Positions 27,512 to 30,447 of a stretch of DNA of 36,074 nt are shown in pieces. Each line of letters starts with the position of its first letter. Position 1 is the stretch's first letter. Below the pieces are notes generated by a model. That model had not been told where the DNA came from. It did no database searches and saw nothing but the letters and a program-made list of their open reading frames with translations. The stretch is from Sulfurospirillum sp. (GTDB lineage Bacteria > Campylobacterota > Campylobacteria > Campylobacterales > Sulfurospirillaceae). The DNA lies in assembly GCA_016735235.1 (NCBI GenBank), contig JAERRW010000047.1:1-36074 (forward strand). Direction: 5' to 3'. The position numbers and the translations under genes were made by a program.

Positions 27512-28651
27512 ATGGTAAAAGTAGCAAATATAGTATTTAACCCTTTTGTGAATGATAGTAGAGTTTTAAAAGAGTCTATATCCTTAGCTAAAAATCACTA
27601 TAAAGTAGAAGTTATAGCTCATGGAGATAAAGACTTATTAGAAGTTGAAGAAAAAGAAAATTTCAAAATAGTAAGATTTAATTATCTTGATAGAAAAGTG
27701 ACTAAAAGCAAAAAAGATAAACTTAAAATTTATTTATTGTGGGCAAAAGAGGTAATTAGTTATGTAAAAACTTTTGATATATTGCATTGTAATGACTTAA
27801 ATGCTTTACCAATAGCATTTATAATAAAAAAGTTTTTTAACAAAAATATAAAAATAGTATACGATGCACATGAATATGAAACAGAGACCAATGGACTCAG
27901 TGGGTTACAGAAAACTTTAACCAAAAAACTCGAAAAGTTCCTTATAAAATACGCCGATAGTGTTATATGCGTAAGTAACTCTATAGCAGATGAGTATGTA
28001 AAGTTATATAATATATCAAAACCGGCATTGGTTCTCAATACCCCCCCCCTATATCGAAATATAATCAAACAAGATATATTTAGAGATACATTTAATATAT
28101 CAAAAGAAAAAAACATATTTTTATATCAAGGTGGATTAGGTCCAAGTAGAGGCATAGAGGTGCTTTTAGATACATTTAAAAGTATAAATAACAATAAAAG
28201 CGTGATAGTATTTATGGGATATGGAACATTGGAAACATTGATAAAAGATACAGCAAAAGAGTATAAAAATATATATTTTCACAAAGCAGTAGCTCCCGAT
28301 GTGTTGCTAAACTATACATCTTGTGCTGATTTTGGAATAGCTACTATTGAAAATACTTGTCTTAGCTATAAATACTGTTTACCAAATAAGGTATTTGAGT
28401 ATCTTATGGCAGAACTTCCTGCTATAGTTTCAAATCTTTATGAGATGAAAAGACTAGTGAAAAATAACAATATAGGCATAGTAGCTACTGATAATACGCC
28501 TTATGGATTAAAAGATGCTATACAAAAAGCAATACTTTTAGATAAAAATGAATTAAATAAAAATATCAAAAAAGTAAAAAATATATATAATTGGGAAGAG
28601 CAAGAAAAAGTGCTACTAGAATTATATGGGGAGTTAAAATGTGTGGAATAA
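27512..28651 (+). CDS. GT4-type glycosyltransferase, candidate phase-variable gene
   Basis: A cytosolic or membrane-associated sugar transferase of the GT-B fold, 379 residues. The N-terminal domain opens VANIVFNPFVNDSRVLKE and contains DILHCNDLNALP and YDAHEYE. The C-terminal domain has YQGGLGPSRGIEVLLDTF and the donor-site block KVFEYLMAELPAIVSNLYEM, as in GT4 enzymes that build surface polysaccharide or O-antigen. A nine-C run at 28041-28049 lies at codons 177-180, in frame. One C more or less brings a stop within about 12 codons. AAGGA sits a few bases before the ATG. The gene overlaps the next one by 13 bases. Confidence 0.85.
   Translation: MVKVANIVFNPFVNDSRVLKESISLAKNHYKVEVIAHGDKDLLEVEEKENFKIVRFNYLDRKVTKSKKDKLKIYLLWAKEVISYVKTFDILHCNDLNALPIAFIIKKFFNKNIKIVYDAHEYETETNGLSGLQKTLTKKLEKFLIKYADSVICVSNSIADEYVKLYNISKPALVLNTPPLYRNIIKQDIFRDTFNISKEKNIFLYQGGLGPSRGIEVLLDTFKSINNNKSVIVFMGYGTLETLIKDTAKEYKNIYFHKAVAPDVLLNYTSCADFGIATIENTCLSYKYCLPNKVFEYLMAELPAIVSNLYEMKRLVKNNNIGIVATDNTPYGLKDAIQKAILLDKNELNKNIKKVKNIYNWEEQEKVLLELYGELKCVE
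28041..28049 (+). repeat. Nine-base C homopolymer inside the glycosyltransferase gene
   Basis: Nine consecutive C's in an AT-rich gene, encoding Thr-Pro-Pro plus the first base of Leu. With eight C's the frame meets TAA six codons later; with ten it meets TAG about 12 codons later. Tracts of this kind are the standard slipped-strand switch of surface-glycan genes in Campylobacter and Helicobacter. This copy is in the ON state. Confidence 0.8.
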
Positions 28652-30447
28652 GTGGAATTATAAATAAATATAAATCAGAAGTGGATAAAAAAGAGATAAA
28701 AAATATAAATGATTTAATATCTCACAGAGGTCCAGATGATGAGGGATTTTTTTATGAAAATAACTTTGCTTTTGCTCATAGACGACTTTCTATATTAGAT
28801 TTAAGTGATAATGGGCATCAGCCTATGCACTATTTGGATAAAAAATATACCATTACTTACAATGGTGAGATCTATAATTATCTTGAATTAAAAGAGGAGC
28901 TTTTAGGTTGTGGTTATCTGTTTAATTCACATACAGATACAGAAATTATACTTGCTAGTTATCATGAATGGGGGAGGAGATGTGTAGATAAATTTAACGG
29001 CATGTGGGCTTTTGCAATATATGACAAGGAGAAACAGATAATATTTTGTAGCCGTGATAGATTTGGTATAAAGCCATTTTATTATACTGAAATTGATAAT
29101 AAGTTTATATTTGGTTCGGAGATAAAACAGTTGTTAGAATTTTATCCACAGAGATATATAAATAAAAACATTTTGATTGATTATCTAATAATAGGATACG
29201 AGGAACATACAAACGAAACTTTTTTTCAAAACATTTACAAGCTAGAACAATCACATAATTTAACTTATAATTTAAATACCAATACTTATAAAACTGAAAA
29301 ATTCTACAACTTAGAGAAAAATAATAAAAAATTGACAGAAACTCAATCTATAGAATTATATGAACAAAGGCTAAAAGATGCCATAACTCTTAGACTTCGC
29401 TCTGATGTAAAAGTTGGTACATGTTTGAGTTGAGGACTAGATAGCTCATCTATAGCAAGTATAGCATCTAAAGTATATAATAAGCAATCAAATAATAAAT
29501 TTGTAGCCATACATGCTAAATCTACACAAAAAAATAATGATGAAAGTAGATATGCACAAGATGTTGCAGAGTATTGTGATTTAGATTTGAAAGTTATAGA
29601 ACCATCAAAAGAAGACTTTGTGAAAAATATTGATGAGATAATTTATACACAAGAGGAGCCGTTTGGTGGTCCATCTATATTTATGCAGTATTTTGTGATG
29701 AAAAAAGCAAAAGAGGAGAATTGCAAAGTTATGCTAGATGGACAAGGTGGAGATGAAATTCTTTTGGGTTATGAGCGATATTATCCTGCATATCTATTAG
29801 ATTTGAATTTTATAGATAGAATAAAAGGAGTATTTAATGCTTCAAAAAATTCAAAATTATCCATCAAACAATTAATATTATATATTATATATTTTACTCG
29901 TTCAAATATTCGTATTAAAAGATTAAAATTCAAAAATAATTACTTAAAAAAAGAATTTTTAGATAATATAAACAAAAAGATACTTGACAGAAATTCAAAA
30001 AGTTATTTAAATATATTTGAGTTGCAAAATGAAGAGATATTTCATACTCAAATGCCTCATCTTTTAAAATATGAAGATAAAAACTCGATGAGAAATTCAA
30101 TAGAAACTAGGTTGCCATTTATAGACTATACTGTTTTGGAAACAGCAATAAACCTTGATAACAAAGTTAAAATCAAAGATGGCTGGACAAAATATATATT
30201 AAGAAAAGTAGCAGAACCTATTCTTCCTAATAATATTGTGTGGAGAAAAAATAAATTTGGTTTTGAAGCACCTGTAAAAAGTTGGTTGAATGAAATTTGT
30301 CAAGACATGGAAACTGTAATTAAAAATTCAAAAATAATTTCAAAAATTTCAAATAATATAATTTTTGATAATTTAGATAATCATCAAAAATGGAAGTTAT
30401 TTAATATTGCAAAATGGGAAGAGATATATAATGTTAAGTTCGATTAA
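28639..30447 (+). pseudogene. asnB: Asparagine synthetase (glutamine-hydrolysing), broken by in-frame TGA
   Basis: From ATG 28639 the frame encodes MCGISGIINKYK, with the C2 nucleophile, then HRGPDDEG, HRRLSILDLS and NGEIYNY of the class II glutaminase domain. Codon 265 (29431-29433) is TGA where the family has the first Gly of the SGGLDSS pyrophosphate loop; the text reads CLS-stop-GLDSSS. The same frame then runs open to 30447 with a normal synthetase domain, 602 residues in total. A single G-to-T change in GGA would explain it. The truncated product keeps glutaminase but cannot adenylate. Restart at ATG 29587 would miss the loop. Such proteins next to glycosyltransferases often amidate sugar acids in surface glycans. 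Confidence 0.88.

What the first reader, a model, noticed from the sequence alone, without database searches (positions are those of the whole stretch)
28041..28049. Nine-C tract: likely phase-variable glycosyltransferase
The tract is the longest G/C run I see in an AT-rich window and lies at mid-gene. Gain or loss of one C stops translation within about 12 codons, giving an on/off switch of a surface glycan. This mechanism is well known in host-associated Campylobacter and Helicobacter; in a Sulfurimonas-like organism it would point to phage or grazer escape.
Basis: partly seen in the sequence, partly recalled or inferred. Interest (0 to 1): 0.65.

Follow-up and report, generated by a model that had tools for sequence, protein, structure and literature searches.

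The report
Phase-variable glycosyltransferase gene switch (poly-C)
A run of nine C's in the middle of a sugar-transferring enzyme gene is very probably a known kind of slippery on/off switch; it is one of about eleven such runs in this bacterium's genome, mostly in cell-surface genes, and this repertoire resembles that of the related gut pathogen Campylobacter in a lineage where I found no published description of it.

Summary
In detail: C9 at 28041-28049, the only G/C run longer than 5 in the window, lies in an intact 379-codon GT4 glycosyltransferase gene (27512-28651). Only lengths divisible by three keep the frame; C8 and C10 give 183- and 190-residue stumps without the C-terminal domain. 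Codon usage alone gives this C9 with probability about 1.5e-4. The host genome (G000, 1.51 Mb) has 11 G/C runs of 8 or more: 8 of exactly 9 (0.08-0.45 expected), 3 of 8, none longer. Ten are in or at genes (glycosyltransferase, glycan-cluster, lipoprotein, restriction): five intact across the tract, five broken exactly at it, while none of 79 genic A/T runs of 8 or more sits at a broken gene. MutS domain I is absent. Seventeen GT homologues (37-71% identical) mostly keep the N-x-P motif but have no C-run, so the tract is lineage-specific. Length variation itself was not observed: no reads or strains were available. Verdict: a phase-variable glycosyltransferase, a new member of a known kind (simple-sequence-repeat contingency genes), in a Campylobacterota lineage where I found no published description. 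The overlapping neighbour asnB carries a nonsense codon.

The parts
28041..28049 (+). C9 homopolymer, the proposed slippage site (ACC CCC CCC C|TA: Thr177-Pro178-Pro179-Leu180); [quoted passage not shown]
27512..28651 (+). GT4/GT-B glycosyltransferase gene, 379 aa, open (ON) at C9
   Evidence: Pfam; AlphaFold2 pLDDT 92.8 and PDB fold matches to GT4 enzymes; homologues
28028..28075 (+). codons 173-188: coil linker between the N-domain (last strand about residue 172) and the C-domain (first helix 189); contains the tract and conserved Asn176 and Pro178
28639..30447 (+). asnB-like glutamine-dependent amidotransferase whose ATG overlaps the end of the GT gene by 13 bases; the same gene pair is found in L025, L026 and L027
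29431..29433 (+). in-frame TGA in asnB in place of the first Gly of the SGGLDSS motif; three homologues have Gly there

Best explanation
The C9 is a slippage (contingency) tract that turns a GT4 glycosyltransferase on and off by frameshift. In the assembled state (C9) the gene is ON. Gain or loss of one or two C during replication, uncorrected because the genome lacks MutS, moves the ribosome out of frame, ends translation 4 or 10 residues past the tract, and removes the entire C-terminal Rossmann domain that binds the sugar donor in GT4 enzymes; later slippage restores it. It is one of about eleven such tracts in this genome, mostly in surface-glycan and lipoprotein genes, so the population is expected to be a mosaic of surface types. 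Shown: tract, frame consequences, domain loss, genome-wide excess of 9-mers, genes split at other tracts, no MutS, no tract in homologues. Inferred: actual length mixing at this tract, the glycan made, and the benefit (phage, predator or host avoidance).
For: C9 and its frame consequences. Synonymous-codon probability of C9 given T-P-P-L about 1.5e-4. Genome-wide G/C runs: 3 of length 7, 3 of 8, 8 of 9, 0 of 10 or more against 0.08-0.45 expected 9-mers. Five tract genes intact (window GT; another GT4; a 590-aa membrane protein in a glycan cluster; a GNAT protein beside a PseI/NeuB-like gene; a lipoprotein). Five broken at the tract (FAD oxidoreductase whose two halves both match Pfam DAO; UbiA-type prenyltransferase, intact in relatives; VWA lipoprotein; second lipoprotein; NgoPII-type restriction fragment). 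Same automatic rule: G/C>=8 4 split/5 intact, A/T>=8 0 split/79 intact, Fisher p 5e-5. MutS_I absent with 11 of 14 controls positive. Tract at the orthologous site of another species with another length (G9 in G000 C39, G8 in G039). A reported slippage bias holds C. jejuni tracts at G9-G10 (PMC8355987), close to the mode of 9 here.
Against: No read-level or strain-level length variation was seen; no reads or second genome of the species were available. The tract sits on a conserved motif (Asn-x-Pro), so some C content is due to protein constraint. Homologues lack the tract. The neighbouring overlapping asnB is broken by a nonsense codon, so the pathway may already be decaying. [quoted passage not shown]
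Confidence: 0.82

Rival explanations
1. Fixed coincidence: the C-run is only an unlucky choice of synonymous codons for the conserved Asn-Thr-Pro-Pro linker and does not slip at a biologically useful rate.
For: The motif is conserved in homologues (ACA CCA CCA and the like), so several of the nine C's are forced by the protein.
Against: Codon usage gives 1.5e-4 for this string. Eight runs of exactly 9 against under 0.5 expected genome-wide, and frame-split genes at the sister tracts. The extra Leu beside the tract, absent in all 17 homologues, looks like past indels here.
Confidence: 0.11
2. Assembly or sequencing artefact: the true tract length, and the OFF state of the sister genes, are miscalled homopolymers.
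For: 106-contig assembly; G/C homopolymers are hard for several platforms (own knowledge); no G/C run of 10 or more is present.
Against: Every one of 79 genic A/T runs of 8 or more lies in an intact frame; A10-A12 runs occur, so there is no cap on length; complete single-contig relatives also hold G/C runs of 9-10.
Confidence: 0.05
3. The tract is mutable but functionally idle: the GT-asnB pair is an acquired, decaying cassette, and switching the GT changes nothing because its partner is dead.
For: The pair is absent from the thrS-upstream position in three congeners; asnB has a nonsense codon in its ATP-binding motif.
Against: The GT itself is intact over 379 codons with the conserved residues of its homologues. 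It may act in another pathway, and asnB loss may only change a decoration.
Confidence: 0.2
4. Transcriptional or ribosomal slippage at C9 sets a graded mix of full and truncated protein without any change in the DNA.
For: Long homopolymers can cause RNA polymerase slippage (general knowledge).
Against: It does not explain the 9-mer excess or the split genes better than DNA slippage does; no tract in homologues.
Confidence: 0.05

Closest known systems
Poly-G/C phase-variable genes (phasome) of Campylobacter jejuni (PhasomeIt, PMC6321876; review PMC8355987)
   Same: G/C tracts of at least 7, mode near 9-10, in surface and restriction genes; ON/OFF by frameshift; no functional mismatch repair
   Different: 11 tracts of 8 or more here; [quoted passage not shown] the organism is outside Campylobacter and Helicobacter; no length variation shown yet
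Helicobacter canadensis simple sequence repeats (PMC2823697)
   Same: homopolymer tracts in coding regions, many around a glycosylation-related region, with frame-shift consequences
   Different: there translational tracts are at the 5' end or the 3' end and the listed tracts are longer (G10 and more); read-level variation was shown there, not here
GT4 glycosyltransferases (MshA 3c4q, BshA, Campylobacter PglA 8dqd)
   Same: GT-B fold, two Rossmann domains, TM about 0.7-0.8
   Different: 12-18% sequence identity only; no PDB sequence match; donor and acceptor unknown

Membership tests
Simple-sequence-repeat translational phase-variable gene | repeat tract long enough to be mutable (G/C >= 7-8) inside the reading frame | tested here: met
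   C9 in frame; cut-off of 7 or more from PMC6321876
Simple-sequence-repeat translational phase-variable gene | one-unit change gives early stop or loss of function | tested here: met
   C8 183 aa, C10 190 aa; C-domain 188-353 lost
Simple-sequence-repeat translational phase-variable gene | tract longer than chance and codon usage give, with sister tracts in ON and OFF states | tested here: met
Simple-sequence-repeat translational phase-variable gene | length varies between cells or strains, reversibly | not testable with these tools
   no reads or second strain; only an indirect hint from the extra Leu and G9/G8 at an orthologous sister tract
Simple-sequence-repeat translational phase-variable gene | mismatch-repair context permitting slippage | tested here: met
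   no MutS_I domain in the genome; 11 of 14 control genomes positive
GT4 glycosyltransferase | N- and C-terminal GT-B domains and the C-terminal PNKxFEY motif | tested here: met
   Pfam; alignment A1 with invariant N292, K293, F295, E296, Y297; fold
GT4 glycosyltransferase | sugar transfer activity | not testable with these tools
   needs biochemistry
Surface-polysaccharide gene | lies in or belongs to a glycan cluster | tested here: inconclusive
   L020 homologue lies among genes that look like flippase, polymerase, chain-length and GT genes, named from their sequence only; in the window the pair stands alone between a TPR gene and thrS

The most novel reading that the evidence does not exclude
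A whole repertoire of poly-G/C contingency genes (glycan enzymes, lipoproteins, restriction genes) is spread through an environmental family of Campylobacterota. Runs of 8 or more occur in 36 of 44 genomes, in all five genera sampled, so genome-wide surface phase variation may predate or be independent of the animal-host lifestyle of Campylobacter and Helicobacter.
Probability: 0.45. Interest if true: 0.55.

Novelty: new member of a known kind. Interest (0 to 1): 0.42.

Why it matters
Phase variation by G/C tracts is usually explained as an adaptation to animal hosts and immunity. Finding the same architecture, with about half the genes OFF, in a Campylobacterota lineage whose named relatives are mostly environmental MAGs makes it testable whether phages, grazers or surfaces alone maintain such switches, and whether the trait is ancestral.

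Tried and rejected
Genetic-code idea: the closest GT homologue (L020, 71%) is filed under Candidatus Gracilibacteria (TGA = Gly) and the neighbouring asnB has TGA at a Gly, but L020 has no in-frame TGA in any of its nine long ORFs while that MAG's own ThrS has 12, so the contig is probably misbinned and the asnB TGA is a plain nonsense codon. Length cap by assembly: rejected, A10-A12 runs exist. PDB sequence search: nothing. Rfam: nothing in the window. Promoter scan: no more than in shuffles. Search for intact FAD-oxidoreductase relatives in the family: none. Paper searches for phase variation in Sulfurimonas, Sulfurovum or vent Campylobacterota: nothing relevant in the held library.

Full report
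Observation. The window has nine C's at 28041-28049. It is the only G/C run over five bases in 36 kb (31% G+C); a first-order chain expects 0.0007 C-runs of nine or more. It lies in an open gene of 379 codons (27512-28651). The frame is ACC CCC CCC CTA = Thr177-Pro178-Pro179-Leu180. C8 gives a 183-residue protein (4 residues after the tract), C10 a 190-residue protein (10 residues after); only C6, C9 and C12 read through.

The gene. Pfam finds Glyco_transf_4 (24-170) and Glycos_transf_1 (188-353), both well over their cut-offs. An AlphaFold2 model on 18 sequences has pLDDT 92.8 and a two-domain shape; the closest solved folds are GT-B enzymes such as MshA, BshA and Campylobacter PglA at 12-18% identity. 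The tract is in the coil between the two domains (residues 173-188), so every out-of-frame length removes the whole C-terminal domain, the donor-binding half in GT4 enzymes (established knowledge). NCBIfam gives only sub-threshold hits to polysaccharide glycosyltransferases.

Is the run just codon choice? Asn176 is invariant and Pro178 nearly so in 18 homologues, so the motif is under protein constraint. But homologues write it as ACA CCA CCA, ACT CCG CCT and so on, with no C-run. From the window's codon usage (ACC 8.6% of Thr, CCC 5.8% of Pro) the chance of C9 given T-P-P-L is about 1.5e-4. Our gene also has one residue (Leu180) that all 17 homologues lack. An added C plus an added TA would explain it; that reading is inference, but it points to earlier length changes here.

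The genome. G000 (1,509,490 bases, 106 contigs, 99.95% complete) has 11 G/C runs of 8 or more: eight of exactly 9, three of 8, none longer; runs of exactly 7 number three. In 160.6 kb in hand the lengths fall 149 (4), 21 (5), 1 (6), 1 (7) and then rise to 3 (8) and 8 (9). That 160.6 kb includes all the 8- and 9-base runs by design, but the decline from 3 to 5 sets the expectation: 0.08-0.45 runs of nine genome-wide. A second peak at nine is what slippage equilibrium gives: in C. jejuni, insertions are favoured at G8 and deletions at G11 or more, holding tracts at G9-G10 (PMC8355987). A10-A12 runs exist, so lengths are not capped technically.

The sister tracts. Ten of the eleven are in or at the start of genes. 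Intact across the tract: the window GT; a second GT4 (C19); a 590-aa membrane protein in a contig with glycan-type genes (C38); a GNAT protein beside a PseI/NeuB-like gene (C39); a lipoprotein (C61). Broken exactly at the tract: an FAD oxidoreductase in the same C38 contig, whose two halves both match Pfam DAO; a UbiA-type prenyltransferase (C49) that is one open frame in relatives; a VWA-like lipoprotein (C23; the VWA match is below Pfam's cut-off) and another lipoprotein (C70), with start codon and tail in different frames; and an NgoPII-type restriction endonuclease fragment (C83) directly behind ATG-G8. Names without a Pfam match (lipoproteins, PseI/NeuB) rest on reading the sequence. One tract is intergenic (C104), some tens of bases before a gene whose start looks like a Tat signal. 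One automatic rule on the same sequences scored G/C>=8 as 5 intact, 4 split, 2 other, and A/T>=8 as 79 intact, 0 split, 19 other; Fisher p = 5e-5. The C83 case is called by eye and is not in that count. Random pseudogenes or general homopolymer miscalls would not be confined to G/C tracts.

Mechanistic context. The MutS mismatch-recognition domain is not found in G000 although it is found in 11 of 14 control genomes, as is usual in Campylobacterota (own knowledge; absence of functional mismatch repair in C. jejuni is stated in PMC8355987). The start codon of asnB (28639) overlaps the end of the GT gene, with GGGGAG just upstream, so asnB is probably coupled to it. GT and asnB are neighbours also in L025, L026 and L027 (about 68% identical asnB), and GT homologue L020 lies in a cluster of polysaccharide-type genes. 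In the window the pair lies between a TPR-protein gene and thrS; in three congeners the thrS-infC side is kept but lspA- and glmM-like genes, not the pair, stand upstream. So it is an accessory cassette. asnB has an in-frame TGA at 29431 within the SGGLDSS ATP-binding motif, so the cassette may be partly broken, or the codon may be an error.

Wider family. In 44 genomes of the family, 36 have at least one run of 8 or more. Examples: a methyltransferase-like gene split at G10 in G043, an acetyltransferase-like gene split at G11 in G041, an HsdS-like gene split at G10 in G027, and an acetyltransferase-like tail with a terminal tract in two genera (G014, G043). A tract at the orthologous site with a different length is seen in G000 C39 (G9) and G039 (G8), at 67% DNA identity. 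Its lifestyle is unknown, and its genome is smaller than those of its congeners (1.5 against 1.9-2.7 Mb).

What is shown and what is not. Shown: the tract, its frame consequences, its rarity, the sister tracts in both states, missing MutS, no tract in homologues. Not shown: mixed lengths of this tract, any glycan, any benefit. I give 0.82 that it is a true phase-variable switch. Resemblance to the Campylobacter phasome is close in architecture; [quoted passage not shown]

Verdict. A correct observation and a mostly correct interpretation; a new member of a known kind. The more interesting part is the genome-wide set, which I did not find described for this group in the papers that could be searched.

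Noticed in passing
window 29431-29433: In-frame TGA in asnB at the first Gly of SGGLDSS; three homologues have Gly there. The rest of the gene is open on both sides.
   Followed up: partly
L067:9304-9810 (G000 C83): C-terminal part only (profile 122-262) of an NgoPII-type restriction endonuclease directly behind ATG-G8, next to an intact gene that looks like a C5 DNA methyltransferase; possible phase-variable or degraded restriction system.
   Followed up: partly
L088:3710-3719 (G014) and L105:1501-1509 (G043): Acetyltransferase-like gene with the same tail (NPAKHKGYVCKCGQKC) carries a G/C tract at its very C-terminus in two genera; candidate C-terminal phase variation.
   Followed up: no
L100:2044-2053 (G027): HsdS-like gene split at a G10 tract: possible phase-variable type I restriction specificity.
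   Followed up: no
L068:10007-10015 (G000 C104): G9 tract between genes, some tens of bases upstream of a gene whose start looks like a Tat signal; possible promoter-type phase variation.
   Followed up: no
L020: Contig filed under a Candidatus Gracilibacteria MAG is Campylobacterota-like (standard code, polysaccharide cluster); probably misbinned.
   Followed up: yes
L070:899-917 (G000 C44): Two G7 runs 12 bases apart inside a repetitive GTAGCAGGGGGG-type stretch.
   Followed up: no
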